From Clavibacter tessellarius (lineage in GTDB: Bacteria; Actinomycetota; Actinomycetes; Actinomycetales; Microbacteriaceae), in contig NZ_LQXA01000026.1 of NCBI RefSeq assembly GCF_001618005.1, positions 1 through 42,219 of the forward strand: 42,219 nucleotides of DNA, given 5' to 3'. Shown piece after piece: positions 10,470 to 32,679 of this stretch (the stretch's first letter is position 1; every line of letters starts with the position of its first letter). Below the pieces are notes generated by a model. It was not told the DNA's origin and ran no database searches. It saw only the letters and a program-made list of their open reading frames with translations. A program made the translations under genes and the position numbers.

Positions 10470-10557
10470 CAGCCAGGCAGCCGTCGCGACGACGCGACGC
10501 CAGCCTGGTGCCCGCGGCGCGACCTCCACAGGGTGGTGGTGGGGACGACCGGCGCGA

Positions 10558-11119: not shown

Positions 11120-11133
11120 CAGACGAACGTCTG
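11120..11133. promoter_or_regulatory. CAGACG-AA-CGTCTG inverted repeat
   Basis: A perfect 6-base inverted repeat in the divergent spacer between the His-rich protein (starts 11019, minus) and the oxidase gene (starts 11288, plus), about 100 bases from the former. It is a candidate operator; the regulator is unknown. Confidence 0.3.
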
Positions 11134-11275
11134 ACCTACCGCGCGGGCGGGAACGGTGCGGGTGCGCCCGGGATTCGCCCTCGCGGACCGACGCCCGTCG
11201 GCTCCTCGCCCGGCCCACGGCTCGCGGCGGGCTTACGGCTCCCGGGCCCGGCACCCGGAAGCGGGGGCGCGACCG

Positions 11276-11281
11276 TAGCCT
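11276..11281 (+). promoter_or_regulatory. -10 hexamer of a probably leaderless oxidase gene
   Basis: TAGCCT ends exactly 6 bases before the ATG at 11288, and no Shine-Dalgarno sequence is visible. This is the third example of the arrangement in the window. Confidence 0.4.
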
Positions 11282-11287
11282 GGCCGC

Positions 11288-12460
11288 ATGACGGGATCCA
11301 CCGGGCGCGGGCGCGCGACCCACCACGTGGTCATCGGCGCCGGGCTCGCCGGGGCGGCCACCGCCTGGCAGCTCGCAAGCCGCGGGCACCAGGTCACGGT
11401 GCTGGAGCGCGACCGGCCGGCGAGCATGCGGGGCAGCTCGCACGGATCCGCGCGCATCCTCCGCTACGCCTACCCCGACCCCTTCTACGTGCGCCTGATG
11501 CGCGACGCCCGCGTGCTCTGGGACCGGCTCGAGCGCAGCACGGGCACGCGGCTCGTGACACCGACCGGATCCGTCGACTCGGGCCTCGTGCGCCGCCCGG
11601 CCGAGCTCGCGCGCGTGCTCGAGCGCGTCGGGATCGACCACGAGCTGATGTCCGCGCGCGCGGCCGAGGACCGCTGGCCCGAGATGACCTTCGACTCCGA
11701 CGTGCTCTTCCACCCGGCCGCCGGCGTGGTCGACGCCGAGGTCGCCGTGCGCACGATGCTCGACCTGGCCGTCGCGCACGGCGCCGTGGTGCACGAGGGC
11801 TGGACGGCCGCGTCGGTGGAGCGCGCCGGCGCCGGCTTCCGGGTGGCCTCCGACGACGGGCGCCGCGTCGACGGCGACAGCGTCGTGGTGGGCGCGGGCG
11901 GCTGGCTGCCCGAGCTCCTGGCCGCGCTGCCGTTCCCGCGCGCCGCCCTCGACCGCATCCCGCCGCTGCGCGTGCGGCAGGAGCAGGTGTTCCACTTCCC
12001 GTATCGGCAGAGTCCGTATCGGCAGAGTCCGTATCGGGATGGCCCGCCCGCCCGATCCGTCCCCACCTCGATCCACATGGACGAGCGCATGCAGGTCTAC
12101 GCGTTGCCCGGCGGCCGCGACGTGGAGGGCCGCGGCCACAAGGTCGCCGAGTTCGAGGGCGGGCGCGTGATCCCGTCGGCCGCGCATCAGGACGGCCGCG
12201 TGGATCCGGCGAACCGCGCGCGCGTCGTCGACTGGGTGCGCCGCAACCTGCCGGGCGTGGATCCGGTGCCGTACGCCGAGTCGACGTGCCTGTTCACGAG
12301 CACCCCGAGCGAGGACTTCGTGATCGACCGGATGGAGGGCATCACGATCGTCTCGCCCTGCTCCGGCCACGGCGCCAAGTTCGCGCCGCTGATCGGCAGC
12401 CTCGCGGCGGATGCGGCGACCGGCGAGCGCGTCGAGCCGCGGTTCGCGTTCGCGCCCTGA
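11288..12460 (+). CDS. N-methyltryptophan oxidase / monomeric sarcosine oxidase-like flavoprotein
   Basis: A 390-residue FAD-dependent amine oxidase. The dinucleotide-binding motif is VVIGAGLAGAATAWQLASRGHQVTVLERD near the N-terminus. SSHGSARILRYAYPD is the conserved flavin loop of the MSOX/MTOX family. Near the C-terminus SPCSGHGAKFAPLIG holds the Cys that binds FAD covalently in this family. It oxidises N-methyl amino acids or similar secondary amines, giving hydrogen peroxide and formaldehyde. A tandem SPYRQ repeat (bases 12001-12037) is inserted after EQVFHFPY. It is probably leaderless and convergent with the coiled-coil gene at 12488. Confidence 0.88.
   Translation: MTGSTGRGRATHHVVIGAGLAGAATAWQLASRGHQVTVLERDRPASMRGSSHGSARILRYAYPDPFYVRLMRDARVLWDRLERSTGTRLVTPTGSVDSGLVRRPAELARVLERVGIDHELMSARAAEDRWPEMTFDSDVLFHPAAGVVDAEVAVRTMLDLAVAHGAVVHEGWTAASVERAGAGFRVASDDGRRVDGDSVVVGAGGWLPELLAALPFPRAALDRIPPLRVRQEQVFHFPYRQSPYRQSPYRDGPPARSVPTSIHMDERMQVYALPGGRDVEGRGHKVAEFEGGRVIPSAAHQDGRVDPANRARVVDWVRRNLPGVDPVPYAESTCLFTSTPSEDFVIDRMEGITIVSPCSGHGAKFAPLIGSLAADAATGERVEPRFAFAP
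12001..12037 (+). repeat. Tandem 15-base repeat inside the oxidase gene
   Basis: GTATCGGCAGAGTCC occurs twice in direct succession (12001-12015 and 12016-12030) and a third copy begins (GTATCGG). It encodes the pentapeptide SPYRQ in frame, so copy number can change without a frameshift. Family members do not usually carry this insert. Confidence 0.9.
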
Positions 12461-12487
12461 GCCGGGGGCGCCGGCGAAGCCGCGCCG

Positions 12488-13174
12488 TCACACCTTCTGC
12501 GGTCGCCCCCGCGCCGGCGTCCGCGTGCGGGTCCGCGCCGGATCCCGCGTGCCCGCGCGCTCCTCGGCCCGCGCCCGCTCGGCCGACAGCCGGGCGAGCT
12601 CGTCGCGCAGCTCGCCGACCCGGTCGTCGCGCCCCTCCTCGGGGAACGCGCCGGGTAGCAGCTGCGGGCTGAGCCGCGCGCGCACGATCTGCTCGAGCGC
12701 CGAGTCGCGCGCGATGACGAGCACCTCGCGCAGCGCCTCCGGATCCCGCGACAGCGCGCCGAGCCGCTCCACGATCTCCTCCGCGATCTCGGCGCGCAGC
12801 CGGAGGCCCGGCACGTCGCCCTCGCGGTAGTCGTCGGGCCGCCGGCCCTTGCCGTCGCGCAGCGCCGCGCGCTCGCAGGCCATGCGTAGCCGCTCGGCCT
12901 CGCCGCGCTTCTCGCCCGTGAGCTCCGCGAGCTCGCCGCGGAGCGCCTCGATGAGCGACTCCTCGTCGAACGGGCGCCGCTCGCGCAACGTGCGCAGGAT
13001 GATGAGGTTCTCCATCTGCAGCCGGAGCGCCACGCCCACGAGCAGCAGGGCCTCCTCGACGAGGACCTCCTTCTGCGCCGGATCCGCGGCCACGCGGGCC
13101 GCGACGGACGGCGGCGGAGGCCCGGGCTTGCTGCTCTTGGCGGGCTTCGCGGGGCGGATGCGGGGCCGGGGCAT
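12488..13174 (-). CDS. Coiled-coil protein of unknown function, 228 aa
   Basis: I do not recognise this gene. The N-terminus is Pro/Lys-rich and basic (MPRPRIRPAKPAKSSKPGPP). The centre is predicted to be almost wholly helical (EEALLLVGVALRLQMENLII, then ELAELTGEKRGEAERLRM), and charged helices continue to an Arg/Thr/Pro-rich tail (TRTRTPARGRPQ). There is no signal peptide or membrane helix. GGGAGG about 6 bases before this ATG supports the start over an upstream one at 13201. Basic ends and a coiled coil suggest oligomerisation and perhaps nucleic acid contact, but no function can be given. It is monocistronic. Confidence 0.72.
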   Translation of the reverse strand: MPRPRIRPAKPAKSSKPGPPPPSVAARVAADPAQKEVLVEEALLLVGVALRLQMENLIILRTLRERRPFDEESLIEALRGELAELTGEKRGEAERLRMACERAALRDGKGRRPDDYREGDVPGLRLRAEIAEEIVERLGALSRDPEALREVLVIARDSALEQIVRARLSPQLLPGAFPEEGRDDRVGELRDELARLSAERARAEERAGTRDPARTRTRTPARGRPQKV

Positions 13175-13323
13175 GACGTCCTCCCGGTCCGCTCGCTCCA
13201 CCGGCGAGGTGGTCCCAGGCTACGCGGAACCGCCGACCCCGGGGCGGGTCGCGCCCCCATCCGTGAGCGGATCCGCGGGCGGGTCCGCGCGCCGGTCCGC
13301 GCGCGAGCCCGGCAGCGCCCGCG

Positions 13324-14283
13324 TCACCCCATCCGCCGCCGTAGGAACGCGAGCGTGCCGAGCTCGTCGTCGATGCCGCCGCCGTCGTGGCCGTTGTACT
13401 CCCACTCGACGATCTCCTTCTCGCCCGCGTAGGAGTTGAAGGCGCCGTAGACGGTGGAGGGCGGGCAGGTCGCGTCCATGAGGCCCACCGAGAAGCGCGC
13501 GGGCGCGGTCGCGCGGCGCGAGAACGCGACGCCGTCGAAGTACCGCAGCACGGCGTGCACGTCCTCGCCGCGGCCCCGGTGCGTCTTCAGGTAGTCGACG
13601 ACCTCGTGGTACGGGTACGCGTCGGTGATGTGCGTGGCCCGCTCGATGTCGCAGAGGAACGGCACGTAGGCCGAGACCGCCGCGATGTCGTCGCGGAGGC
13701 CGGCGACCGCGAGGGCCATGCCGCCGCCCTGGCTGCCGCCCTGCACGGCGATGCGCGACGCATCCACCACGTCGAACGAGCGGGCGACGTCGACCGCGCG
13801 CACCGCGTCGGTGAAGAGGCGGCGGTAGTAGTAGGTCTCCCGGGAGGCGATGCCGCGGGTCATGAAGCCGGGGATCGCGGGGCCGGCCTCGCCGTGGTCG
13901 GCGGTGTCGCCGGCGCTCCAGTACGAGCCCTGGCCGCGGGTGTCCATCTGCAGGTGCGCGAAGCCGGCGGCCGCGTAGATCAGGGTCTCCTCGGCGCGTC
14001 CCCGCCCGCCGCCGTAGCCGACGAACGAGACCACGGTGGGCAGCGGGCCCGTCGCGCCCACGGGGGTGCGGAGCCAGGCGCGGACGTCGGTGCCGCCGGA
14101 TCCGGCGAAGGTCACGTCCTGCACGTCGACGAGCGCGAGGTCGGTCTCCACGGGCGCGAGCCGCACGTCGAGGTCGTGGCTTCCGGCCTCGGTGAGGGTG
14201 TCGGACCAGAAGGCGTCGAAGTCGTCCGGGTCGACGTGGCTGCTGACGTGCGCGCGGGCGGCGTCGACGGGTTCGATGAGCAT
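13324..14283 (-). CDS. Acetylxylan esterase / cephalosporin-C deacetylase family (AXE1)
   Basis: A 319-residue alpha/beta hydrolase of the AXE1 (CE7) family. The nucleophile elbow is QGGSQGGG with Ser184; the general acid is Asp270 in SVGLMDATCPPST, and the base is His299 in YNGHDGGG. RGQGSYW (residues about 116-122) and CPPST are family hallmarks. No signal peptide is present, so it acts inside the cell and deacetylates imported short acetylated sugars or acyl compounds. It lies 88 bases downstream of the TetR gene on the same strand. It may be the last gene of the importer operon or a separate unit under the same control. Confidence 0.9.
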   Translation of the reverse strand: MLIEPVDAARAHVSSHVDPDDFDAFWSDTLTEAGSHDLDVRLAPVETDLALVDVQDVTFAGSGGTDVRAWLRTPVGATGPLPTVVSFVGYGGGRGRAEETLIYAAAGFAHLQMDTRGQGSYWSAGDTADHGEAGPAIPGFMTRGIASRETYYYRRLFTDAVRAVDVARSFDVVDASRIAVQGGSQGGGMALAVAGLRDDIAAVSAYVPFLCDIERATHITDAYPYHEVVDYLKTHRGRGEDVHAVLRYFDGVAFSRRATAPARFSVGLMDATCPPSTVYGAFNSYAGEKEIVEWEYNGHDGGGIDDELGTLAFLRRRMG

Positions 14284-19750: not shown

Positions 19751-20745
19751 GCGCGGGCCTTCCGTCGGGCGCCGCGCGGCAGGCGCCGGGGACGCTGCCT
19801 CGTGCGGAGCCGGGGATCGAGGGCGAGGGCGGCGAGGTCGGCCGCGAGGTTGCAGACCACGTACACGCCGGCGCTCAGGAGGGCGATCGCCTGGATGGTC
19901 GGCAGGTCGCGCGTGGAGACGGACTCGAGCATCAGCTTCCCCATGCCCGGGTAGTTGAAGACGTTCTCGACCACGACGACGCCGCCGAGCAGCCACGCGA
20001 CGTTGAGCGCGACCACGTTGAGCGTCGGCAGCAGGGCGCTCGGCACGGCGTGCCGCCACACCACCTGCCGGGTCGTGAGGCCCTTGAGCTCGGCCGTCGT
20101 GATGAACTCCGACGCCATCACGTCGATGGTCGACGACCGCATGGTGCGCAAGATGTAGGCCGCCATCGCGAGGGTCAGCACGATCACGGGCAGCCCCACC
20201 GAGGGCAGGAGCTCGGCGACCGTGGCGTCGCTGCCGCGGAGCACCACGGCGGGGAAGACGGGGATCGCGATGGCGAACGCGAGCACCAGCACGGTGGCGA
20301 CCATGAACTCGGGCACGCTCATCACCACGAGGCTCACGACGCTGATCACCGAGTCGATGCGGCGCCCGCGGCGGACGCCCGCGACCACGCCGAGCGCGAG
20401 CGAGACGGTGACGCCGACGAGCATCGCCGGTATCGCGATGAGCATGCTGTTGCGGAAGGCGAGGAGCAGCGTCGGCGCGACCGGGTCCCCGCTCACGAGC
20501 GAGGTGCCGAAGTCGCCGCGCGCGGCGCCGAGGAGCCAGTCGCCGTAGCGCAGCCACACGTTCCGGTCGAGCCCGAGCGACTCGCGGAGGGTCGCGACCG
20601 CCTCGGGCGTCGCGTTCTGGCCGAGGAGCTGCTGCGCCACGTCGCCCGGCAGCAGCTGCACGGCGAGGAACACGAACAGCGAGGCGAGCACGATCGTGAG
20701 GAGCGCCGTGCCGATGCGGCGGACGACGGCCAGCGACGCGGTCAC
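19747..20745 (-). CDS. ABC importer permease, DppB type
   Basis: A 332-residue permease. The first helix (RRIGTALLTIVLASLFVFLAVQLLPGD) with the LPGD end is characteristic of DppB/OppB. The periplasm-side segment has LRESLGLDRNVWLRYGDWLLGAARGDFGTSL, and the EAA loop reads EFITTAELKGLTTRQVVWRHAVPSALLPT. The C-terminal tail is strongly basic. The GTG start overlaps the binding-protein stop (GTGA), and its own stop overlaps the DppC start. Confidence 0.93.
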   Translation of the reverse strand: MTASLAVVRRIGTALLTIVLASLFVFLAVQLLPGDVAQQLLGQNATPEAVATLRESLGLDRNVWLRYGDWLLGAARGDFGTSLVSGDPVAPTLLLAFRNSMLIAIPAMLVGVTVSLALGVVAGVRRGRRIDSVISVVSLVVMSVPEFMVATVLVLAFAIAIPVFPAVVLRGSDATVAELLPSVGLPVIVLTLAMAAYILRTMRSSTIDVMASEFITTAELKGLTTRQVVWRHAVPSALLPTLNVVALNVAWLLGGVVVVENVFNYPGMGKLMLESVSTRDLPTIQAIALLSAGVYVVCNLAADLAALALDPRLRTRQRPRRLPRGARRKARA

Positions 20746-22397
20746 GCGCGGAACCCGATCGTGAGGTGGTCGAACTCGAAGCCGTGCTCGCGGTAGTTGA
20801 CGACGTCGCGCGAGATGCCGACGAGCCGGTCGCCGAACATGGGCGTCATGTCCGCGCTGTCCTCCACGACGAGCCGCTGGGCGTCCTGGTAGAGCATCAG
20901 CCGCTTCGCGTCGTCCATGGTGGCGCGGGCGTCGTCGAGGAGGGCGTCGAACGTCGGGTTCGACCACGCGCTCTCGTTGTAGGAGGACCCGGTGCGGAAG
21001 ATCTGGTTCAGCACCTGGTCGATGGGCCGGCCGGTGAACCAGTAGCTCACCATCAGCGGCTTCTGCATCCAGATCTCCGTGAAGTAGGAGTCGGCGGAGG
21101 AGCTCCGCACGGTGAGGTCGATGCCCGCCGCCTTCACCTGGTCGCGGTACGCGACGGCCATGGGCGTGAAGACCGACTCGTAGCTGGAGGTGTGGATCTC
21201 CGTCTTGAGGCCCGCCATGCCGGCCTTCGCGAGCAGCGCCTTGGCCTGGTCGGGGTCGTAGGGGCGCTCGACGTCCACGAACGCGGCGAGCGACGGCGGC
21301 ACCGGGTTGTCGCGCGCCGGCGTGCCGGTGCCCTGCAGGGCCGTGGCGACGATCTGCTCGGGGTCGTACGCGAGCTTCATCGCCTGCCGCACGAGCGGGT
21401 CCCGGAACTCGTCGCTCGTGGCGAGCATCGGGATCGTGTACCACTGCGCGTCCACCACCCGCGCGACCGTCGCCCGGCTCGAGGCCGAGACGACGCGGGC
21501 GGTCGCGAAGTCGAGGTTCGTCTGCGAGATGAGGTCGATCTGCCCGGCGAGCAGCGCGTTGACGCGGGCCGTCGTGTCCTGGATGGAGGAGAAGTCGATG
21601 CCGTCGAGCACGGGTCGGCCGGCGAAGTGGTCGTCGAACGCCTCGACGCTGCCGGATCCGGCCGGGTGGAACGACGAGAGGCGGAACGGCCCCGTGCCGA
21701 TGCCCGCGCGCCCGATCGTGCCGATGGCGGCCGCCGGCACGATGTAGCACTGGTACGCCGTGAGCAGCGACGGGAACTCCGCGTTCGGGGTGAGCAGCTG
21801 GAACCGGAGCGTGTACGGGTCGGGCGCCGACATGCTGTCCGGGCCGATCATGTCGGCGAGCACGCCGCCCTGCGGGGAGGCCGTCGCCGGGTCGAGGATG
21901 TGCTGGATGGAGGCGATCGCGTCGGCGGCCGTGAAGGTCGACCCGTCGTGGAAGCGCACCCCGCGGCGGAGCCGGAAGGTCCAGGTGGCGCCGTCGGCGC
22001 TCGCCGCCCACTCCTCGGCGAGGTCGGGGATCGTCTGTCCCTTCTCATCGAGCCTCACGAGCCGGTTGTAGAGGGCGCCGAGGTACTCGTACGCCGAGAG
22101 CGAGCTGGCGGAGTCGAGGGTCTCGGCGGCGGATGCGGCCGGCCGCGCGACGCGGAGGCGGCCCCCGCGGGCGGCGGTGCCGGTGGCGGCGGCCTCGGGG
22201 ATGGTCGTGCTGTTCGCGCCGGTGGCGCATCCGGTGAGGGCGAGCAGGCCGAGGCCGGCGATCCCGGCGGTGCCCGCGAGGACGGCGCGGCGGCTGGGCG
22301 CGGCCGGTCGGTCGGGGCGCGCGGCGCGGTCGACGACGCGGATGGAGCGCGAGCTCGCGTCCGCGAGCGCGGTGCGGGTGGTGACGATCGATGGCAT
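20742..22397 (-). CDS. Lipoprotein substrate-binding protein, family 5 (oligopeptide type)
   Basis: A 551-residue solute-binding protein. The export signal has a twin-arginine style SRRAVLAG (Arg36, Arg37) and a lipobox LTGC with Cys57, so it is probably exported by Tat and anchored in the outer face of the membrane. Family-5 features are LAEEWAASADGATWTFRLRRGVRFHDGSTFTAADA near residues 120-155 and DRLVGISRDVVNYREHGFEFDHLTIGFR at the end. GAGGAGG about 10 bases upstream supports the start. It is the first gene of the operon. A perfect palindrome (22417-22436) abuts the ribosome binding site, so repression here would control all genes. Confidence 0.92.
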   Translation of the reverse strand: MPSIVTTRTALADASSRSIRVVDRAARPDRPAAPSRRAVLAGTAGIAGLGLLALTGCATGANSTTIPEAAATGTAARGGRLRVARPAASAAETLDSASSLSAYEYLGALYNRLVRLDEKGQTIPDLAEEWAASADGATWTFRLRRGVRFHDGSTFTAADAIASIQHILDPATASPQGGVLADMIGPDSMSAPDPYTLRFQLLTPNAEFPSLLTAYQCYIVPAAAIGTIGRAGIGTGPFRLSSFHPAGSGSVEAFDDHFAGRPVLDGIDFSSIQDTTARVNALLAGQIDLISQTNLDFATARVVSASSRATVARVVDAQWYTIPMLATSDEFRDPLVRQAMKLAYDPEQIVATALQGTGTPARDNPVPPSLAAFVDVERPYDPDQAKALLAKAGMAGLKTEIHTSSYESVFTPMAVAYRDQVKAAGIDLTVRSSSADSYFTEIWMQKPLMVSYWFTGRPIDQVLNQIFRTGSSYNESAWSNPTFDALLDDARATMDDAKRLMLYQDAQRLVVEDSADMTPMFGDRLVGISRDVVNYREHGFEFDHLTIGFRA

Positions 22398-22416
22398 CGG
22401 GACGGGCCCTCCTCGT

Positions 22417-22436
22417 TATCGTTCAGGTGAACGATA
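22417..22436. promoter_or_regulatory. Perfect palindrome TATCGTTCA-GG-TGAACGATA
   Basis: A 9-base perfect inverted repeat with a 2-base spacer, 20 bases before the ATG of the binding-protein gene. The architecture is that of a TetR-family operator. It is the best candidate site for the TetR regulator encoded at the end of the same operon. The rest of 22437-22711 holds no other feature I can support. Confidence 0.7.
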
Positions 22437-22711
22437 GGCGAGATGCCGGCCCGTGGCGAATGCTGACCGGATGCGCGGCGATCGTCGGCGCCGTCGCGCG
22501 GGCTCGACTCCCCCCTGCGAGACGCCCGATGTGGACGCCCCCGGCGGCGTCCGCCGCCGTCCTCCATCCTGTCCACGCGGGCCGAGGGGGCCACCGCCCT
22601 CGGGGCGGCGCACGACCTCCGCGTCCCGCGCATCCGTCGGGGGCCCCGCTCCCGCGCATCGTCCGCCGGAGCTCGTTCCGCGCGTGATCCGAAGAAGAGA
22701 AGAGGCACGGA

Positions 22712-23452
22712 ATGCTCGCGAACCTGCTCGTGGCCGGCGTGGCCATCACCCTGGGGCTGTCGGGCGGCGCGCCCACGCCGACGACCGCGGATCCGGCGCA
22801 GTCCCACATCGTGGCCGGCCGCGTCGCGCCGTTCACCCCGTGGGCGGTCCAGATCGTCGAGACCGGCGGCACGATCGCCGCGGGGCGGGAGGAGGACTGC
22901 ACGGGCGTGCAGGTCGACGCCTCCTGGGTCCTCACCGCGCGGCAGTGCACGGGGGACACCGACGACATCGACGTCTACCAGTCGAACTCGGTGACGCACT
23001 CGGGCCCCGCGACGCCCGTGGACCGCGTGGTCGTTGCCCCGAAGGGCGACATCGCGCTGATGCACCTCGCCGCGCCCGCGCCCCTGTCGGCGTACGCCCC
23101 CCTCGACCTGCGATCCGGGGCGGCCGCCTCCGGCACCGGGACCATCGAGGGCTACGGCTTCCGCGCGCACGGGAAGCAGGCGACGAGGCTCTACGCGGCC
23201 ACCGTCCGCCTCACCGGCGCCGAGGTCGACGGCTTCCACGGCGCGGCGCAGGAGGTCACGGGCATCAACGGAGTGCCGAACGACGGCGACTCCGGCGGTC
23301 CGCTCCTGGTCGACGGCCGCGTCCGCGCCCTCTGCTCCCAGGGCTTCGGCGACGAGCGGGACGACCCGCACGGCGTCTCCGTCTACGCCCTCCTCTCGCA
23401 GGACGCGGCGTGGATCCGGAGCACGACGGGGGTGCGCGGCGCCGGTCGGTAG
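22712..23452 (+). CDS. Secreted chymotrypsin-like (S1) protease homologue with Gln for catalytic His
   Basis: A 246-residue S1-fold protein. A short signal peptide (LLVAGVAITLGLSGGA) precedes IVAGRVAPFTPWAVQIV, the usual start of the mature enzyme. The Asp of the triad lies in GDIALMHL (Asp113) and the nucleophile in GDSGGP (Ser194). At the place of the invariant TAAHC motif the sequence reads TARQC (Gln78), so the catalytic His is missing. AAGAGG precedes the ATG. Clavibacter carries families of related secreted serine proteases (Pat-1/Chp/Ppa) involved in plant infection, and some members are thought to be non-proteolytic. This may be a binding protein or a decayed enzyme. Confidence 0.8.
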   Translation: MLANLLVAGVAITLGLSGGAPTPTTADPAQSHIVAGRVAPFTPWAVQIVETGGTIAAGREEDCTGVQVDASWVLTARQCTGDTDDIDVYQSNSVTHSGPATPVDRVVVAPKGDIALMHLAAPAPLSAYAPLDLRSGAAASGTGTIEGYGFRAHGKQATRLYAATVRLTGAEVDGFHGAAQEVTGINGVPNDGDSGGPLLVDGRVRALCSQGFGDERDDPHGVSVYALLSQDAAWIRSTTGVRGAGR

Positions 23453-23521
23453 GGCGGCGGGCGCGCTTCCCGACGACGAGCGACATGCCCGCGCGGCGCG
23501 GCGTCGTCGTGCCGAGCCTCT

Positions 23522-23593
23522 ACTCACGTGCACGTCCGGCCGCCGGGCCCTCACGGGCTCGGCCCGCCGCAGCACCTCGCGCGTGACCGGGGC
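23522..23593 (-). pseudogene. Third copy of the APC permease 3' end (about 72 bases)
   Basis: Read on the minus strand, this encodes [20 protein letters not shown], the end of the APC permease at 27761. The stop codon is replaced: after HVS the frame reads AGA instead of TGA. Similarity stops abruptly on both sides. It lies in the same orientation as the intact gene and as the longer copy at 25862. Confidence 0.7.
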
Positions 23594-23726
23594 CTGCGAC
23601 GTCGGGGCCCGGCACGTGGCCTGGCGGACGGGGGGAGGGCGGGCGCGCAGGTCCCGGGTCCTCGGCTACCGTCCATCCGCCTCGCGTCCGCGACGGCTCA
23701 CCCCGCCTCACCACGGAAGGTCCACC

Positions 23727-24197
23727 ATGATCCCTGACTCCTCCACGCCACCCCCGGCGTCCCGCCGTCCCGCTCTCCGCGGCATGCGGCTGATCGCGTG
23801 CGCTCTGGCCGTGGCGGGCGCGTTCACCGCCCTGCCGGTCGCGGCGCCGCCCGCGAGCGCGCAGCCCGAGGCCTTCGCGCATCACGGCTGGGGCGACGGG
23901 TTCGACCTCTTCGTCACGACCAGCAAGTACACGGCCGTCCAGGTCGGGCCCACGCCCACGAGCGACAAGGTCTGCATCCCCATCTCCCCGGGAAACAGGT
24001 GGAACTCGCTCGACTTCACCACCGCCCAGGGCTGGGGTGCGACGATCAACCCGGTCCCGGACTGCAGCAGGGATTGGGGCATCTTCCCGAGCAACTTCCG
24101 GGCCCACCTCGGTGAGCACTGGCATCTGGAGGGCACGGTCGCGCGGTGCGTGAAGTACGCGGGCGGCCCGACGCACCAGTGCGAGGGCCGCCTGTAG
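23727..24197 (+). CDS. Secreted Cys-containing protein of unknown family, 156 aa
   Basis: An exported protein with a clear Sec signal peptide (LIACALAVAGAFTALPV, cleavage after PPASA near residue 45). The mature part is about 110 residues, rich in Trp and Gly, with four Cys (in KVCIP, PDCSR, ARCVK and HQCEG) that could form two disulfides. Segments such as HHGWGDGFDLFVTTSKYTAVQV and GEHWHLEGTVARCV suggest a small beta-sandwich. GGAAGG lies about 6 bases before the ATG. It sits just after the short APC 3'-end copy and ends in a hairpin terminator. No family is recognised. Confidence 0.68.
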   Translation: MIPDSSTPPPASRRPALRGMRLIACALAVAGAFTALPVAAPPASAQPEAFAHHGWGDGFDLFVTTSKYTAVQVGPTPTSDKVCIPISPGNRWNSLDFTTAQGWGATINPVPDCSRDWGIFPSNFRAHLGEHWHLEGTVARCVKYAGGPTHQCEGRL

Positions 24198-24243
24198 GAA
24201 GGCGCAGCCTCCACCCGCCACGGCGCGGGAGCCCGCGCATGAT

Positions 24244-24277
24244 GAGGCGGTCGGCACCTCCGGGTGTCGGCCGCCTC
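24244..24277 (+). terminator. 15-bp hairpin terminator
   Basis: The arms 24244-24258 and 24263-24277 pair over 15 positions (two G-U wobbles) with a TCCG loop, 47 bases after the stop of the secreted protein gene. No long T run follows. The VOC gene ends nearby from the other side, so it may work in both directions. Confidence 0.65.
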
Positions 24278-24295
24278 GTCGTCGTCGCCGTCGGG

Positions 24296-24763
24296 TCAGC
24301 CGGCGGACGGCGCCTGCACGTCGATGACCCAGGTCACGCCGAACCGGTCGGTGAGCATCCCGAAGCCCGCCGCCCAGGCGGATGCGGCGAGCGGCTCGAT
24401 CACGGTCGCGCCCTCCGCGAGCCCCGCCCAGCAGCGCTCGACCTCGGCGAGGGACGCGCCCCGCAGCGACTGGAAGAAGGTGCGGTCGGTGATCGTCGCG
24501 CCCTGCTCGCGCGTCGTCGTGCCGGCGATCGCGCTGCCGTCGGCGTCGTCATGGCCGGGCACGTCGTAGGCCATGAGCCGGAGGCCGTCGGCGGTCTCGA
24601 GCTGGCCGAAGACCACCTTGTCCGCGCCGGGCGCCTCGGCCGGCATGCCGAGGTCGGCGTAGGTGGCGACGACGACGTCCCCGCCGAGGACGCTCCGGTA
24701 GAGCTCGAGCGCCTGGCGCGCGGTGCCGCGGAAGTTGAGGTGGGTGGTGGTCGTGATGCTCAC
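24296..24763 (-). CDS. VOC family protein (PhnB/glyoxalase-like)
   Basis: A 155-residue protein of the vicinal oxygen chelate fold, PhnB/3-demethylubiquinone-like group. The marks are HLNFRGTARQALELYRSVLGGDVVVATYADLGMP, LETADGLRLMAYDVPG, and the C-terminal FGMLTDRFGVTWVIDV. The exact chemistry cannot be inferred, since metal ligands vary in this group. The GTG start is supported by GAGGAGA about 5 bases upstream. It is divergent from the WYL regulator at 24871, a very common pairing in actinobacteria, and likely to be under its control. Confidence 0.88.
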   Translation of the reverse strand: MSITTTTHLNFRGTARQALELYRSVLGGDVVVATYADLGMPAEAPGADKVVFGQLETADGLRLMAYDVPGHDDADGSAIAGTTTREQGATITDRTFFQSLRGASLAEVERCWAGLAEGATVIEPLAASAWAAGFGMLTDRFGVTWVIDVQAPSAG

Positions 24764-24870
24764 GGTGTCTCCTCGTGCTGGGTGGTGCGGCTCCGGATCC
24801 GGGCCGCTGAGGAGCACCCTCCCGGCAGTGGCGGACAGCTGCGGTCCTCCACTCCCGCGAGACTGGATCC

Positions 24871-25845
24871 ATGATCGGGAGCTCGTCGCGGATGCTGTCC
24901 CTCCTGTCGCTGCTGCAGACCCGGCGCGACTGGCCGGGGCGGATCCTCGCCGAGCGCCTCGAGGTCACGCCGCGCACCGTCCGCCGCGACGTCGAGCGCC
25001 TCCGCGAGCTCGGGTACGAGATCCGCTCGGTGAAGGGGCCGGACGGCGGCTACCGGCTGGCCGCCGGGTCGGAGCTGCCGCCGCTGCTGTTCGACGATGA
25101 GCAGGCCGTGGCGATCGCCGTCGCGCTCCAGTCGGTGCCCGCGATGGGCGTCGACGTCGACGAGGCCGCGGAGCGCGCCCTCGCGACCGTGCGGCAGGTG
25201 ATGCCGTCGCGGCTGCGGCACCGGATCGACGGCATCCGCTTCACGGGCGCGGAGCCGGAGCCGGGGCCGGGCGCTGAGCCACGGGTGGATCCGGTGGTGC
25301 TGGAGGCCGCGAGCGCCGCGGTCCGCGACCGGCTGACCCTGCGCTTCGACCGCGTCGGCGAGGAGGCGGGGCCGCCCCGGCGCGTCGAGCCGCACGCGAT
25401 CGTCGCCCGGCGCTCGCGGTGGTACCTCGTGGCGTGGGACCTCGACCGCGACGACTGGCGCACCTTCCGGCTCGACCGGATGCTGCCGCGCACGCCCACC
25501 GGCCCGCGCTTCGCGCCGCGGGAGCTGCCCGCGACGGAGGCGCGCACGTTCCTCGCGGCCCGGGCGAAGGGATCCGCGGCGGAGGACCGCTGGCCCTGCA
25601 CCGGTGAGCTGCTCGTCGAGCTGCCCGCCCGCGAGGTCGCCCTGTGGATCGGCGACGGCGAGATGGAGGAGGTGTCGGCGACGTCGACGCGGATCACCGT
25701 CGGCTCGTGGTCGTGGACCGGGGTCCTCGCCGCCGTGGCCCGCTTCGACGCCCCGATCACGGTCGTCGCGCCGGAGGAGCTGCGCGCGGCGGCCGGCGTC
25801 CTGGCCGCGCGCCTCCGCTCCGCGCAGGAGCCGCCGCGCGCCTGA
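24871..25845 (+). CDS. WYL-domain transcriptional regulator (YafY-like)
   Basis: A 324-residue regulator. The N-terminal winged HTH reads RMLSLLSLLQTRRDWPGRILAERLEVTPRTVRRDVERLRELGYEI. The WYL domain (about 150-260) contains RRSRWYLVAWDLDRDDWRTFRLDRM, which binds nucleotides or other ligands in relatives. The WCX C-terminal extension ends with EELRAAAGVLAARL. It is divergent from the VOC gene and ends only 16 bases from the partial APC copy at 25862, which suggests that this convergent pair was the original chromosomal arrangement. Confidence 0.9.
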   Translation: MIGSSSRMLSLLSLLQTRRDWPGRILAERLEVTPRTVRRDVERLRELGYEIRSVKGPDGGYRLAAGSELPPLLFDDEQAVAIAVALQSVPAMGVDVDEAAERALATVRQVMPSRLRHRIDGIRFTGAEPEPGPGAEPRVDPVVLEAASAAVRDRLTLRFDRVGEEAGPPRRVEPHAIVARRSRWYLVAWDLDRDDWRTFRLDRMLPRTPTGPRFAPRELPATEARTFLAARAKGSAAEDRWPCTGELLVELPAREVALWIGDGEMEEVSATSTRITVGSWSWTGVLAAVARFDAPITVVAPEELRAAAGVLAARLRSAQEPPRA

Positions 25846-25861
25846 CCGGCCCGTCGCCGCG

Positions 25862-26161
25862 TCAGCTCACGTGCACGTCCGGCCGCCGCGCCCGCACCGG
25901 CTCCGCACGCCGCAGCACCTCGCGGGTCACCGGGGCGACCTCGCCCGTGCCCGTCACGAGGAAGCGGAGGAGGTTGCCGACGGGGGACCCCTCCGTCCAC
26001 TCGAAGTAGACGCCGGGCTTCACTCCGGTGAGGTCGCGGACGGCGAGGAGCACGGCCGCGATCGTGTTGGGGACGTTGCCGCTCGTGACCTGGAGCACGC
26101 GGAAGCCGCAGCGGACGATGCCGCGCACCACGAGGTCCTCCTCGAACTCCGACGAGTCGCC
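25862..26161 (-). pseudogene. Second copy of the APC permease 3' end (about 300 bases)
   Basis: Encodes the last 99 residues of the APC permease (from [14 protein letters not shown] to VHVS and a stop) with no start. Compared with the intact gene I count eight base differences over about 300; seven are synonymous and one changes Ser to Ala near the end. This bias means the two versions diverged as working coding sequence, so this is an allelic or orthologous copy and not a fresh duplication. The similarity also runs about 15 bases beyond the stop. Upstream it ends at 26161, followed by unrelated sequence. Confidence 0.88.
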
Positions 26162-26182
26162 CGGGGTCCCTCGTCCGCAGGC

Positions 26183-26275
26183 GCGGCTCGAGTGATGGTC
26201 TGGTGCATCGGGAGCGGCACTCTTCGTCATCGATCAGGCGAACATGACGAGAGGCCGGCCGGTGGCGACTGAGGC
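26183..26275 (-). other. Relic of an importer-type regulatory region and gene start
   Basis: This region is about 75-80% identical by eye to 22379-22465, the start codon, ribosome binding site and palindrome region of the binding-protein gene. The motif GCATCGGGA (around the start codon), the operator-like TCATCGATCAGGCGAACATGA half, and GGCCGGCCGGTGGCGA line up in order. The minus-strand ATG at 26208 starts a short frame (MHQTITRAAPADEG) that soon runs out of phase into the APC fragment. It looks like the broken 5' end of another importer operon. Nothing is recognised in 26276-26364. Confidence 0.5.
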
Positions 26276-26364
26276 ATCGCATCGGTCTCGGCCCGGCAGC
26301 CCGCCCGCCTGCCGAGCGCGGAGGATGGCGTCTCTCTCTGAGACGGCGGCTCGCCTGCCGGTCG

Positions 26365-26898
26365 TCACCAGCTCTTGGTCACGTACGCGTTGGCTGTCGG
26401 CGCGACGCTGTTCCCGCCCTGGGTGTCGGTCACCACGCATGCCCGGTTGTATGTGGTCGCCGTCCACGAGAAGGCCTTGCCGGCGGAGCCGAGCTCGATG
26501 TACTGCCCGTTCAGCCCTTCCGGGACCGTGTAGGACGCGGAGGCGCTCTGGGTGATGGTCTGCGCAACGCCCAGCGTCACCCCCGCGGTCACGCTCGCCG
26601 ATGCCACGACAGCGTCGGCGGTCACCGTGCCGGACACGCTGACATCCGCATGCACCTCGGATGACTGGCCCGATTCGATAGAGAGGACCGCGCCGCTGTC
26701 GCCATAGATCCGCAGGTTGCCGGGTACGTACGTATCGGAGACGTTGGAGACGGCGATGTCGGGCCCATCTCCTGAGCACTCGGAGTTCGTGCCAGCGCCG
26801 ACCGCCTGCGCTGCGGTACCTCCGGAGAGGAGGAGAAGAGCGGCGATGCCTACGGTGGAAGCGCTTCGTGCAACGACGGATGTGCGTGTCATGGTCAT
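26365..26898 (-). CDS. Secreted beta-rich protein of unknown family, 177 aa
   Basis: An exported protein with a Sec signal peptide (STVGIAALLLLSGGTAAQA). The mature domain begins GTNSECSGDGPDIAVSN and has two Cys. The centre is strongly alternating Ser/Thr/Val (VSVSGTVTADAVVASASVTA, then GVTLGVAQTITQSASASYT), followed by VPEGLNGQYIELG. Such amphipathic paired strands followed by a VPxG turn recall the membrane-inserting hairpin of aerolysin/MTX-type proteins, but this is a pattern only. It follows the lipoprotein gene by 8 bases, with a weak AAGAAG site. Local GC is about 63-70% in the stretches I counted, below the flanks. Confidence 0.65.
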   Translation of the reverse strand: MTMTRTSVVARSASTVGIAALLLLSGGTAAQAVGAGTNSECSGDGPDIAVSNVSDTYVPGNLRIYGDSGAVLSIESGQSSEVHADVSVSGTVTADAVVASASVTAGVTLGVAQTITQSASASYTVPEGLNGQYIELGSAGKAFSWTATTYNRACVVTDTQGGNSVAPTANAYVTKSW

Positions 26899-26906
26899 GA
26901 TGCTTC

Positions 26907-27476
26907 TTATTCCCTCGTGTAGTAGGTCGACAGCCAGAAACGGCTGCCATCGGGGATCGTGATCTCGAGCTTCGTCGGGGCGGTCGGATCGTCGAGGGGG
27001 ACGCCGTAGATGCCTCTGCCTTCCGTACCGCATGTGGTCCCCACGCGGTTGGGGTTGGGCTGCGCGACGTTGATCCAGTAGTTCTCGCTCCCTGTGCACG
27101 TGACGGTCATGACGACCTTCTTCGCCGCCGGATCGCTCGAAGCAGGCAGCGTCACGTCAACGACGCTCCCGCTACCCGGCTCGATGGTGGCCGCAGCCGT
27201 ATCAGTTCGAGGCACCTCCGCCAGCTCGGCCGCGCTGCCTGTGAAGTCCCCGGCGTGCTCCCACGAGGAGAACTTGCGGTTCACGGATGCTTCGAGCGAG
27301 GAGAACTGCTCCGCATCACTCGGCGTCGCTTCCGGGACCGCAGGGGCGAGCGTCGACGCCGAGCTCGGGTCTCCCTCTTCGCCGGTCGGGCCGCTGGTGC
27401 ATCCCGCGAGCGCGAGGAGCCCGATGAGGCACGCTCCGGTCATCGCGTCTGGACGGAGTCGATGGTGCCAGGTCAT
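26907..27476 (-). CDS. Lipoprotein of unknown family, partner of the secreted protein
   Basis: A 189-residue lipoprotein with lipobox LAGC (Cys26) and a long Ser/Thr/Pro/Glu linker (GPTGEEGDPSSASTLAPAVP) that would space the folded domain from the membrane. The C-terminal domain has VVDVTLPASSDPAAKKVVMTVT, two Cys (in TCTGSE and TTCGTEG) and ends FWLSTYYTRE. AAGGAG lies 6 bases before the ATG. It is the first gene of a two-gene unit with the secreted protein. The lower GC, the flanking APC repeats and the lack of known families suggest acquired cargo. An immunity or anchoring role for the secreted partner is possible but unproven. Confidence 0.65.
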   Translation of the reverse strand: MTWHHRLRPDAMTGACLIGLLALAGCTSGPTGEEGDPSSASTLAPAVPEATPSDAEQFSSLEASVNRKFSSWEHAGDFTGSAAELAEVPRTDTAAATIEPGSGSVVDVTLPASSDPAAKKVVMTVTCTGSENYWINVAQPNPNRVGTTCGTEGRGIYGVPLDDPTAPTKLEITIPDGSRFWLSTYYTRE

Positions 27477-27529
27477 GTGCGCTCCTTCGTGGTCGTCAGC
27501 AGGCTCTTGGGAATCGACCTTGGTCGCCC

Positions 27530-27543
27530 GCGTCAAGTGACGC
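27530..27543. promoter_or_regulatory. GCGTCA-AG-TGACGC inverted repeat
   Basis: A perfect 6-base inverted repeat with a 2-base spacer, 54 bases upstream of the lipoprotein gene. It is a candidate operator for the two-gene unit. The rest of 27544-27760 is lower-GC sequence without a gene I can support. Confidence 0.35.
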
Positions 27544-27760
27544 AAGGGGTTGCTCCAGATCGCGGAGGGGAGCGCACCACCCGATCCCCGTGATGACGGG
27601 CTTCACGACGCGACCGAGACGTTTCGTGGTGGCCATGGGCATCTAGGGGACCTTGACGTACGACTAACTACGCGCTCGCGCTCGTCCAACAGCTGCCCAC
27701 GGCACGAGACGTCGGAGTTGTTGCTCGACATCACCGCCATTCGGCCGGCGCGCCGCCGCC

Positions 27761-29890
27761 TCAGCTCACGTGCACGTCCGGCCGGCGCGACCGCACCGGC
27801 TCCGCCCGCCGCAGCACCTCGCGCGTGACCGGGGCGACCTCGCCCGTGCCCGTCACGAGGAAGCGGAGGAGGTTGCCGACGGGGGACCCCTCCGTCCACT
27901 CGAAGTAGACGCCGGGCTTCACTCCGGTGAGGTCGCGCACGGCGAGGAGCACGGCCGCGATCGTGTTGGGGACGTTGCCGCTCGTGACCTGGAGCACGCG
28001 GAAGCCGCAGCGCACGATGCCGCGCACCACGAGGTCCTCCTCGAACTCGGACGAGTCGCCGTGCGTCACCTCGAGGAAGATCACGGGCGCTCGCGCCGGG
28101 ATCCCGCTGTCGCGCCGCTCGTCGCTCGCCTTCCGGCGGTACTCGGCGACCTGCTCGGCCTCCGTCAGCGCCTCGTCGGGCTCGTCCGGCTCGTGGGCGA
28201 TGATGCTCACCGCGCCGTAGTCCTCCGCGTCCTCGATGACGAATGCGCGGGCCTGCTCGTCCATCGTGAGCGAGGTCGCGCGCAGCTGGAAGGAGCGCTG
28301 CACGCGGCTCACGATCGACACCACGAGGATCCCGAGGATGAACAGCGCCGCGATGCGCACGCCGTCCGGCCGCTCGATCACGTTCACCACGGTCGTGTAC
28401 GCGAACACCGTCGCGATGGCCGCGAAGCCGACCATGCGCTTGCGCTGCCCGGCCTTCCGCGCCGACAGCGTCACCGCGACCGAGGCCGAGGTGATGAGCA
28501 CGAGCACGCCGGTGGCGTAGGCGCCGGCCTGCGCGTCCACGTTCGCCTGGAACACGACCGTCACGAGCACCGCGATGGCCGTGAACACGAGCACGAGCGG
28601 GCGCACCGCCGCGGCCCAGTGCGGCGCCATGCCGTAGCGCGGCAGGTAGCGCGGCACGATGTTGAGGAGCCCGGCCATCGCGGAGGCGCCCGCGAACCAG
28701 AGGATGCAGATCGTGCTGATGTCGTAGAGCGTGCCGAAGCCGTCGCCGAGGAACTGGTGCGCCAGGTACGCGAGCGCCCGGCCGCTGGCCTTGCCGCCCG
28801 GCTGGAACTCGGCCTGCGGGATCAGGAGCGTGGTCACGAAGCTCGACGTGATGAGGAACGCGCTCATGATGAGCGCCGCCGTCGCGAGCAGCCGCTTCGT
28901 GCCGTGGATCCGCGTGCGCGGCACCCCGTCGGCGTCGTCCTCGCCGCGCACCTGCGGCATCACCGCCACGCCCGTCTCGAAGCCGGAGAGGCCGAGCGCG
29001 AGCTTCGGGAAGACGATGAGCGCGATGCCCACCATCACGAGCGGGTTGCCGTGCTGCGCCGTGAGCGCGAGCCACCAGTCGTCGATGACCTGGAGGTTGC
29101 CGGCGACGTGGAAGAGGGAGACGACGATCACGACCGCGTTGAGGGCGAGGAAGACGCCCACGAGCACGACCGCGATGGAGATCGCCTCCCGGAACCCGCG
29201 GAGGAACACGAAGGCGAGCGCCGCGATGAGCACGAGCGTCAGGAGCACCTCGTTGCCCGCGAACCACGACGGCGCGAACGGGTTCTCGACCGCGTGCGCG
29301 GTCGCGTCCGCCGCCGACAGCGTGATGGTGATGAGGAAGTCCGTCGCCGCGAACCCGAGCAGCACGAGCACGAACAGCTTGCCGCCCCACCAGGGGAGGA
29401 GGCGCTCGAGCATGGCGATGGATCCCTCGCCGCGCGGGCTCTCGCGCGCCACCCGCCGGTAGACGGGCAGCGCGCCGAGCAGCGTCAGAAGGATGAGGAC
29501 GAGCGTCGCGAGCGGCGACAGCAGGCCCGCCGCGACGGCCGCGATGGCGGGCTGGTAGCCGAGCGTGGAGAAGTAGTCGACGCCGGTGAGGCACATGACG
29601 CGCCACCACGAGTGCGTCTTCCCCACGGTCTCGGCGTGCGGACCGGGGTGCGCGCCGGATGCGCCGGGCAGGCCGTCGAGGAGCCAGGCGGTGATCCCGG
29701 CGCGGGCCCGCCGCTGCTCGGGCGCGCGCAGCAGCTTCGGGCCGCTCACGACCGGTCTCCGGCGGGGGCGGTTCGGGGTGTCGACGTCGGGCAGCCGTTG
29801 ATCGGGCAGCGCACCGGTGATCCTCCTGAGGCGGCGCCGGGGCCCCGTCTCGCGGATGCGACGGTCGGGCCCGGCAGCATCGTCGCCCAT
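27761..29890 (-). CDS. APC superfamily permease with C-terminal cytoplasmic domain
   Basis: A 709-residue transporter. Residues about 1-75 are polar and end at the first helix region, [22 protein letters not shown]. About twelve membrane helices follow, including [20 protein letters not shown]. The soluble C-terminal domain (about 540-709) has [21 protein letters not shown] and ends [38 protein letters not shown]. The set is a conserved actinobacterial APC permease; the substrate (amino acid, or ion) is not determinable. GGAGG about 7 bases before the ATG supports the start. Its 3' end occurs two further times downstream, so the last part of this gene may derive from recombination. Confidence 0.9.
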
Positions 29891-31272: not shown

Positions 31273-31426
31273 CCGTCCCGACAGTAGACCGGTTGCCGGT
31301 GGGAGGGCGGGCGGCGGACGGGAGGCCGGTCCCGCTCGCGTCGGGACCCCGCCGGTGGCGGGCTCGTCGCCTCCCCGGGGCGGGCCCGCCGACCCCGACC
31401 CCGACCGTGGGCACGGGCGGACGGGG

Positions 31427-31591
31427 CTACCCCCTGCCGTCGAACTCGCCGTTCAGGCGGTCGCGGAGGAGGAGGAGCTGGACGCGCTGGGCGCCCGGCA
31501 CCTCCCCGCCGCTCAGGACCTCGTCGAGGACGCCGGCCTAGACGCCGCCCTCCTCGACGGTGAACACGATCCGATCCCGGGAGTCGCTCAT
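31427..31591 (-). pseudogene. Small frame interrupted by an in-frame amber codon
   Basis: On the minus strand, ATG at 31591 opens MSDSRDRIVFTVEEGGV, then TAG at 31538-31540, then AGVLDEVLSGGEVPGAQRVQ and LLLLRDRLNGEFDGRG before a normal TAG. Both halves read like a single acidic, helix-rich 54-residue protein, and one base change (for example GAG to TAG) would explain the break. No start codon with a ribosome binding site is obvious for the second half. It is a probable nonsense pseudogene. The remainder of 31273-31845 has no gene I can support. Confidence 0.5.
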
Positions 31592-31845
31592 CGTCCGAGC
31601 ATGGTCCTGCTCGCGGACTCCGCGCGCGTCGATCGGGGACATCGTCTCGCGTGCCTCGGGATGCGGGACGTCCCGCGCACGGCGGAGCTCGCCGCGGACC
31701 GGGCCGAGGACCGGGCGGCGTCCGTCGTCATGCGCCTCCGGGCGGGCGCCGCTCCGCACGACCACCGCCCGCCGCTGCGCCTAGCCTCGGATCGGGCGCG
31801 CCGCACCGTCGCGCCCACCCGCATCCACGAGGAAGAGGAACGCGC

Positions 31846-32679
31846 ATGACGACCTGGCTGATCACGGGATGCTCCACCGGACTCGGACGCGCCTTCGCGG
31901 AGGAGGCGCTGTCGCGCGGAGAGGACGTCGTCGTCACGGCCCGCGACGCCGCCAACGTGCAGGACCTCGCCGACCGCTTCCCCGAGCACGCCCTCGCGCT
32001 CGACCTCGACGTGACCGACCCGGCGCAGGTCTCGCTCGCGGTCGATGAGGCGACCGCCCGCTTCGGCGGCGTCGACGTGCTCGTCAACAACGCGGGCTAC
32101 GGCTACCGCGCGGCCGTCGAGGAGGGCGACGACGAGGACGCCGCGCGCCTGTTCGACACCCACTTCCACGGCAGCGTCCGCATGATCAAGGCGGTGCTGC
32201 CCGGCATGCGCGAGCGCCGCAGCGGCACCATCGTGAACCTGTCGTCGATCGGCGCCGCTCGCACGGGCGCGGGATCCGGCTACTACGGCGCCGTGAAGGC
32301 CGCGATCGAGCAGATGACCATGGCGCTGCGCACCGAGCTCGCGCCGCTCGGCATCGTCGCGACGGTCGTGGCGCCCGGATCCTTCCGCACCGACTTCTCC
32401 GGCCGCTCGCTCACGCAGTCGTCCACGGTGATCGACGACTACGCCGAGACCGCCGGGAAGCGCCGCAAGGAGAACGACTCCACCGACGGCACGCAGCCCG
32501 GCGACCCGGCCGCGGGTGCGCGCGTGCTCGTCGACGCCGTCGCCTCGGGACGCGCTCCCTACTACCTCCTGCTCGGGGCGGACGCGGTGGAGATCGTGAC
32601 GGGCGCGCTCGACGACCTGCGCGCCGACATCGACGCGTGGGCCGCGGAGAGCCGGTCGACGGGGTACGACGCCGGCTGA
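31846..32679 (+). CDS. Short-chain dehydrogenase/reductase
   Basis: A 277-residue classical SDR. The cofactor-binding glycine motif is ITGCSTGLGRAFAEEAL, and VLVNNAGYGYRAAVEEGDDED holds the NNAG motif. The catalytic Ser is in IVNLSSIGAARTG, with Tyr and Lys in GYYGAVKAA. The substrate-binding loop VAPGSFRTDFSGRSL is normal. The Arg at the end of strand 2 (VVVTARD) favours NADPH. GGAAGAGGAA supports the start. It converges with the FAD monooxygenase gene, 5 bases apart. The reaction is oxidoreduction of an unknown alcohol or ketone. Confidence 0.92.
   Translation: MTTWLITGCSTGLGRAFAEEALSRGEDVVVTARDAANVQDLADRFPEHALALDLDVTDPAQVSLAVDEATARFGGVDVLVNNAGYGYRAAVEEGDDEDAARLFDTHFHGSVRMIKAVLPGMRERRSGTIVNLSSIGAARTGAGSGYYGAVKAAIEQMTMALRTELAPLGIVATVVAPGSFRTDFSGRSLTQSSTVIDDYAETAGKRRKENDSTDGTQPGDPAAGARVLVDAVASGRAPYYLLLGADAVEIVTGALDDLRADIDAWAAESRSTGYDAG

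What the first reader, a model, noticed from the sequence alone, without database searches (positions are those of the whole stretch)
23522..29890. Three same-direction copies of one permease 3' end flank accessory blocks
The APC permease ends intact at 27761, again (300 bases) at 25862, and again (70 bases) at 23522. The 300-base copy differs at eight sites, seven synonymous, so it came from another lineage's working gene. The WYL gene ends 16 bases from the second copy, which suggests the original neighbour. The pattern fits repeated Campbell-type capture of circles that carry the gene's 3' end, giving an intact gene, cargo and a cut copy. No recombinase is visible.
Basis: partly seen in the sequence, partly recalled or inferred. 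Interest (0 to 1): 0.78.

Follow-up and report, generated by a model that had tools for sequence, protein, structure and literature searches.

The report
Permease 3'-end scars of stacked gene insertions
In the plant-associated bacterium Clavibacter, leftover pieces of one transporter gene's end mark places where alternative sets of accessory genes seem to have been added side by side by ordinary DNA recombination, without a visible integrase.

Summary
The permease 3' end occurs three times: intact gene at 27761, a ~313-bp relic (c2) at 25862, a ~71-75-bp relic (c3) at 23519; the first 300 bp of c2 differ at eight codons, seven synonymous. Among 17 other Clavibacter genomes, three show the predicted empty site, one has SBP directly beside the permease, others carry other cargo; G012 and G013 have their own relics (176, 112 bp).

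The locus reads SBP-cargo-permease(cut)|SBP(cut)-cargo-permease: two alleles of one variable interval joined head to tail. The same joint occurs at two unrelated Clavibacter loci met in control stretches, but was not detected at seven other relics. Between G000 and sister G016 the block ~22900-27744 is 99.6% identical outside c2; c2 is 96.5% and shares strain-specific alleles with its own intact permease.

Best reading: recombinase-free, homology-anchored addition of donor fragments (Campbell-like circle or homology-facilitated illegitimate recombination), then homologous exchange. Circle versus linear is unresolved. New variant of a known kind.

The parts
20742..22397 (-). SBP gene (family 5 extracellular solute-binding protein): conserved left flank
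   Evidence: Pfam PF00496 E 1.7e-71; DNA conserved up to ~22463 in 14 of 17 relatives (all but G001, G007, G015)
22334..22462 (.). SBP 5' end plus upstream block; original of the relic at 26150-26271
   Evidence: local alignment
22712..23452 (+). trypsin-family serine protease ORF, accessory (described only)
   Evidence: PF00089 E 3.3e-17; at DNA level (E <= 1e-8) 22464-24287 matches only G016 among 17 relatives, apart from the permease relic inside it
23519..23593 (-). c3: second permease 3'-end relic (~71-75 bp)
23727..24197 (+). small ORF of unknown family (secreted-looking by eye), accessory
   Evidence: no Pfam hit; DNA matched in G016 only among relatives, and a 122-bp piece elsewhere in G000 (C47, 75%)
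24296..24817 (-). VOC/glyoxalase-like ORF
   Evidence: PF00903 E 2e-05
24871..25845 (+). WYL-domain regulator
   Evidence: PF13280 E 1.1e-17
25862..26173 (-). c2: permease 3'-end relic (~313 bp), exchanging sequence with the intact copy
26150..26271 (.). decayed copy of the SBP 5' end/upstream block, abutting (alignment slightly overlapping) the broken end of c2: novel joint; clearest part 26205-26271
   Evidence: 81% over 69 columns, E 5e-10; score 97 vs best 63 of 314 tiles elsewhere in the window; rank 0 of 176 tiles in G000 and 0 of 172 in G016
26365..26898 (-). accessory ORF, unknown family, secreted-looking by eye
   Evidence: DNA relatives elsewhere in G012 and G003
26907..27476 (-). 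accessory ORF, unknown family; homologues at this locus in G003 and G014
27761..29890 (-). intact permease-like gene, conserved right flank
   Evidence: ORF of 709 aa; DNA of its 3' part present in 18 of 18 genomes
22900..27744 (.). block apparently exchanged recently between the G000 and G016 lineages (possibly on to ~27880)
   Evidence: 20 differences in 4530 columns outside c2, c2 11 in 315; 22464-22899 has 48 in 433, 27881-28073 10 in 193; flanks

Best explanation
The interval between the SBP gene and the permease is a variable locus. At least twice in this lineage, a donor DNA fragment from another Clavibacter-like lineage, carrying cargo plus the permease 3' end (and for the c2 event also the SBP 5' end), was added instead of swapped in. 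One end was placed by homology in the permease; the other end was joined without homology inside the resident permease 3' end. The product is old cargo - cut permease 3' end | donor end - new cargo - intact permease, so newer cargo should lie nearest the intact gene. Circularisation of the fragment followed by one crossover, or direct homology-facilitated illegitimate recombination of a linear fragment, both give this. The finished block then moved between the G000 and G016 lineages by ordinary homologous recombination, and c2 keeps exchanging sequence with the intact gene. Shown: anatomy, empty sites, novel joint at c2, identity profile of the block, strain-wise sharing between copies. Inferred: how the joints formed, the order of events, circle or linear, direction of transfer.
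For: Empty sites and alternative cargo. The G012 and G013 relics are contiguous with the resident left neighbour (WYL in G012, SBP in G013), as expected for the displaced resident end. Related cargo beside the permease comes with different relic lengths: 176 bp (G012), 112 bp (G013), ~67 bp at 79% (G014), none (G003). SBP relic abutting c2. Two-ended joints at unrelated genes in G017 (HrpA-type helicase/GNAT; the two cut 3' ends overlap by 6 bp) and G012 (unknown gene/aldose epimerase); each truncated copy found in 1 of 18 genomes, with a 282-bp interval in G011 for the second. c2 anomaly inside the block: 11 of 315 against 20 of 4530, Fisher p 1.9e-6. Columns 124, 127, 163, 166 and 208 are shared between c2 and intact copy within each strain, columns 25, 30, 64 and 67 follow orthology. 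The 26370-27760 cargo is 66% G+C against 72-77% for most neighbouring genes. Ku in 18 of 18 genomes.
Against: The SBP relic is found only at c2 (G000 and G016), not at c3, G012, G013, G014 or G003, and no second flank was found at L226 or L254; those joints are one-ended or too decayed. The excess of gene-end relics over other genera is not significant. Uptake of DNA or NHEJ activity in Clavibacter was not tested; a ComEC-type protein in G000 proves little, since 10 of 14 control genomes also have the family. The exact break at the c2 joint is not resolved.
Confidence: 0.65

Rival explanations
1. Tandem duplication plus allele swap: a spontaneous duplication first made interval-permease(cut)|SBP(cut)-interval-permease within the strain, and one of the two copies then had its cargo replaced by homologous exchange.
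For: Gives the same novel joint; homologous exchange of the whole block between G000 and G016 is indicated. At L198 the cut and intact copies of the first gene are 99.5% identical, as a fresh local duplication would give.
Against: At L215 the cut ends are about as different from the intact genes (HrpA 96%, GNAT 83%) as G017 is from G012 there (HrpA 95%; 87% over the stretch that includes GNAT), which suggests a donor joint; but decay could mimic this.
Confidence: 0.2
2. Site-specific elements: integrase-mediated insertion into the permease 3' end, restoring the gene as in the E. coli e14/icd case (recalled), with the integrase lost or acting in trans.
For: Gene 3' end restored by a diverged, mostly synonymous copy; same direction; empty sites exist; all stop-bearing relics include the first ~67 bp, so a core there is not excluded.
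Against: No recombinase family among the cargo proteins scanned at this locus; relic lengths vary (313, 176, 112, ~75, ~67); the sequence left of the permease stop is not conserved between genomes with different cargo; a copy of the opposite flank at the c2 joint is not expected; other genes show the same pattern.
Confidence: 0.06
3. Insertion-sequence or transposon activity captured flanking DNA.
For: An IS481-type transposase lies in the second cargo of one comparable locus (L198).
Against: The window proteins scanned gave no transposase hit; the repeats are gene 3' ends rather than short target duplications.
Confidence: 0.04
4. Draft assembly artefact.
For: G000 is in 61 contigs.
Against: G016 (4 contigs) has the same arrangement with its own differences.
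Confidence: 0.01

Closest known systems
V. cholerae T6SS effector-immunity module stacking (Kirchberger 2017, PMC5361080; passages seen)
   Same: New module anchored by homology on one side, proposed to be illegitimate on the other; older material shifted away; in one case the 3' end of an effector gene is shifted back; homologous exchange also occurs.
   Different: There the effector gene is displaced; here the anchor is an unrelated conserved permease kept whole, and a piece of the opposite flank sits at one joint.
Minimal mobile elements of Neisseria (Saunders and Snyder 2002, recalled; definition seen as quoted in PMC3082526)
   Same: Alternative gene cassettes between two conserved genes, moved by homologous recombination.
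   Different: The quoted definition has different cassettes in different strains; here two or three are kept side by side with gene-end scars.
Homology-facilitated illegitimate recombination (de Vries and Wackernagel 2002, Prudhomme 2002: recalled and seen in reference lists; start of the abstract of PMC3240628 seen)
   Same: One homologous, one illegitimate end; no recombinase.
   Different: The abstract seen concerns laboratory transfer; here it is inferred from natural stacked scars.
Transformation merodiploids in S. pneumoniae (PMC3784515; passages seen)
   Same: Tandem presence of two alleles after DNA uptake.
   Different: Those are ~100-900 kb, and arise between repeats.
e14/icd-type integration at a gene 3' end (recalled)
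   Same: Gene restored by a diverged 3'-end copy.
   Different: Needs an integrase; none seen here.

Membership tests
Minimal mobile element | Different whole-gene cassettes between two conserved genes in different strains | tested here: met
   SBP-permease interval differs among the 18 genomes; one genome per species, so species rather than strains
Minimal mobile element | Incorporated by homologous recombination | tested here: met
   indirect: G000/G016 identity profile
Minimal mobile element | One cassette in place of another (single occupancy; my reading of the concept) | tested here: not met
   Cargo sets stacked with relics in G000, G016, G012, G013
Homology-facilitated illegitimate recombination product | One homologous end | tested here: inconclusive
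   intact permease continuous beside cargo is consistent, crossover not located
Homology-facilitated illegitimate recombination product | One joint with little or no homology | tested here: met
   c2/SBP joint and L215 joint with 6-bp overlap
Homology-facilitated illegitimate recombination product | Shown to arise on entry of foreign linear DNA | not testable with these tools
   needs an experiment
Campbell-type circle integration | Cut copies of both circle ends meet at one joint | tested here: met
   met at c2, L215, L198; not detected at c3, G012, G013, G014, G003, L226, L254
Campbell-type circle integration | Circular intermediate | not testable with these tools
   no reads available
Integrase-driven genomic island | Recombinase gene in element | tested here: not met
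   no recombinase Pfam hit among the cargo proteins scanned at this locus
Integrase-driven genomic island | Fixed crossover core and constant attP arm | tested here: inconclusive
   arm not conserved between different cargo, relic lengths vary, but the stop-proximal ~67 bp is in every stop-bearing relic

The most novel reading that the evidence does not exclude
Clavibacter has a genus-wide, recombinase-free way of accreting genes: incoming fragments spanning a variable interval are circularised or end-joined (Ku is in all 18 genomes searched) and added beside the resident allele, leaving cut gene ends as permanent scars at about two sites per megabase (4 in 2.0 Mb) that also serve as handles for later exchange.
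Probability: 0.35. Interest if true: 0.75.

Novelty: new variant of a known kind. Interest (0 to 1): 0.52.

Why it matters
It shows how a high-GC actinobacterium, without a visible integrase at this site, may stack alternative accessory genes (several secreted-looking by eye) at a fixed place. The cut gene ends are a readable scar from which the number of additions, their relative order and sometimes the partner flank can be inferred, which makes the question of how integrase-free islands grow testable across a genus.

Tried and rejected
Site-specific integration at the permease 3' end: no recombinase among the proteins scanned, no fixed relic length, no conserved arm; a core in the stop-proximal bases is not excluded. 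Not every cargo ORF was scanned. tRNA-linked island: no tRNA in the window. Permease 3' end as a hotspot in other genera: 74 of 80 loci had at least 1500 bp downstream; the only 3'-end copies were in the Clavibacter locus L057 (112 bp, and a weak 49-bp match), the other 73 had none at E 1e-4. A low-threshold self-search gave many GC-driven weak matches, which I disregarded except where supported elsewhere. A loose gene-end criterion flagged 17 pairs in 79 other-genus permease loci, none of which passed the strict one (stop plus at least 50 bp of coding sequence inside the repeat). That strict criterion was set after L198, L215 and L226 had been seen; of the 40 Clavibacter stretches fetched later 1 qualified (L254). 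The contrast 4 of 100 Clavibacter stretches against 0 of 99 other pieces is not significant (p 0.12), and 79 of those 99 are permease loci, not sampled stretches. The second p-value (permease locus 5 of 18) is not used, because one of the five (G015) is a repeat at another place. The Fisher test used a rough count for part of the block; one search recounts it and replaces it. SBP-like pieces were sought and not found at c3, G012, G013, G014 and G003, nor a second flank at L226 and L254. Copies of the MFS gene's 3' end between it and the permease: none. Permease family: unresolved.
Full report
OBSERVATION. The window is from Clavibacter: G013, one of the 17 same-genus genomes, has its permease on a contig of the same length (399,716 bases) as the record Clavibacter sp. 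VKM Ac-2873 found. Three same-direction copies of the permease 3' end are present at the stated places; the first 300 bp of the longer relic differ at eight codons, seven synonymous. G000 has no further strong copy.

COMPARISON ACROSS THE GENUS. All 18 genomes have the permease. Only G016, the sister of G000 in an rpoB tree (support 0.985), has all three copies. G012 has a 176-bp and G013 a 112-bp relic, G003 an internal fragment, G014 a weak ~67-bp one. G002, G006 and G017 are empty sites with SBP-VOC-WYL-permease contiguous (the WYL ORF of G002 looks shortened). G010 has SBP directly beside the permease. Others carry different genes between: an FAD-dependent oxidoreductase and acetyl xylan esterase (G001), a luciferase-like monooxygenase (G015), a DUF7882 protein (G004), and a 298-299-residue protein (G005, G009, G011, G013; no Pfam hit in the G009 and G013 ones scanned). 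The G012 relic is contiguous with its WYL gene and the G013 relic with its SBP gene, which suggests that the relic is the resident end and the cargo next to the intact gene the addition.

THE JOINT. If a fragment spanning the whole interval had been added, a piece of the left flank should lie against the broken end of c2. It does: 26150-26271 aligns with 22334-22462, the SBP start and its upstream region. The alignment scores 97, against at most 63 in 314 tiles of the window, and ranks above all 176 tiles of the G000 locus and all 172 of the G016 locus. BLAST gives E 5e-10 against the window's own SBP region and also matches the homologous block in G016 and 12 other genomes. The locus thus reads SBP - protease, c3, small ORF, VOC, WYL - permease(cut) | SBP(cut) - two small ORFs - permease. 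The same test was negative at c3 and at the relics of G012, G013, G014 and G003.

THE SAME SCAR ELSEWHERE. Control stretches meant to measure background contained the same thing. In L215 (G017) the 3' end of an HrpA-type helicase gene (DUF3418 and helicase domains) is repeated 3.2 kb on at 96%, and the 3' end of a GNAT gene is repeated 2.6 kb back at 83%; the two cut ends meet with a 6-bp overlap. In L198 (G012) a small gene's 3' end (192 bp, 99.5%) and a 105-bp piece of an aldose epimerase gene (75%) meet in the same way. Each truncated copy of the first gene occurs in 1 of 18 genomes, and G011 has a 282-bp interval at the second site. L226 and L254 show one-ended versions. Under the strict criterion 4 of 100 Clavibacter 20-kb stretches qualify (2.0 Mb, ten genomes), against 0 of 99 pieces of other genera (1.89 Mb: 20 spaced 20-kb stretches and 79 permease loci). 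The criterion was set after three of the four had been seen, and the contrast is not significant (p 0.12).

RECENT HISTORY. Aligning G000 with G016: 22900-25845 has 12 differences in 2946 and 26161-27744 has 8 in 1584, while 22464-22899 has 48 in 433, the SBP gene is 97.7% identical, the permease 95.7-97.7% and the MFS gene 93.3%. Two stretches outside do not fit a simple contrast: 22398-22463 is identical (66 bp) and 31273-32600 is 98.2%. The block looks exchanged between the lineages as a piece. Inside it c2 stands out with 11 differences in 315, against 20 in 4530 for the rest (p 1.9e-6). At columns 124, 127, 163, 166 and 208 the two copies of each strain agree with each other and differ from the other strain, while columns 25, 30, 64 and 67 follow orthology and column 253 is swapped. 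The copies have exchanged sequence with each other, so the divergence of c2 from the intact gene is not a clock.

MECHANISM. Shown: anatomy, empty sites, joint, signs of exchange. Inferred: a donor fragment anchored by permease homology, joined illegitimately at the other end, either linear or after circularisation. Ku is present in 18 of 18 genomes. A ComEC-type protein is in G000, but the family is also in 10 of 14 control genomes. Natural transformation is reported for two freshwater Actinobacteria, Rhodoluna lacicola and Aurantimicrobium photophilum; [quoted passage not shown] None of this shows that Clavibacter takes up DNA. A tandem duplication followed by allele swap is the strongest rival.

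KNOWN. The closest published models are sequential displacement in V. cholerae T6SS clusters (PMC5361080, passages) and minimal mobile elements (definition quoted in PMC3082526, passages). Small variable segments, some flanked by direct repeats, have been described in other species (PMC2884548, passages). Searches with 'Clavibacter' (all 10, 6 and 2 papers listed; 10 of 13 listed) showed no paper whose title or abstract start describes this locus or such gene-end scars. One Clavibacter comparison (PMC4059874, passages) speaks of low-GC islands and has no occurrence of 'direct repeat' in its main text. These searches cover open-licence papers only.

Noticed in passing
L215 (G017:C1:2550001-2570000), 7952-13753: Two cut gene 3' ends (HrpA-type helicase, GNAT) meet head to tail between two cargo sets; clearest example of the joint.
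   Followed up: yes
L198 (G012:C2:600001-620000), 2614-7627: Second two-ended joint, with an IS481-type transposase in the following cargo.
   Followed up: yes
L226 7225-8808 (G009); L254 6044-7036 (G011): One-ended 3'-end duplications at the end of a 481-aa ORF (L226) and of a gene that looks like ychF (L254; name recalled from its C-terminus).
   Followed up: partly
G012 permease 3' end (L042): The permease next to the new cargo appears frameshifted near its 3' end; described only.
   Followed up: no
G015 (rel. 2189-4234) and G011 (rel. 2377-3995), 5' side of the permease: 72-83-bp direct repeats 1.5-2 kb apart on the other side of the permease.
   Followed up: partly
L060, L068, L073, L074, L096 just downstream of the permease: In five Frigoribacterium records short repeats (60-82 bp, 85-99%) about 1.2 kb apart lie right after the permease; function unknown.
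   Followed up: no
G008 vs G005/G009/G011: G008 lacks about 0.8 kb covering most of the 299-aa ORF present in the others.
   Followed up: no
G002 (L041), WYL gene: The WYL ORF of this empty-site genome is only 148 aa in the ORF list, so it may be broken.
   Followed up: no
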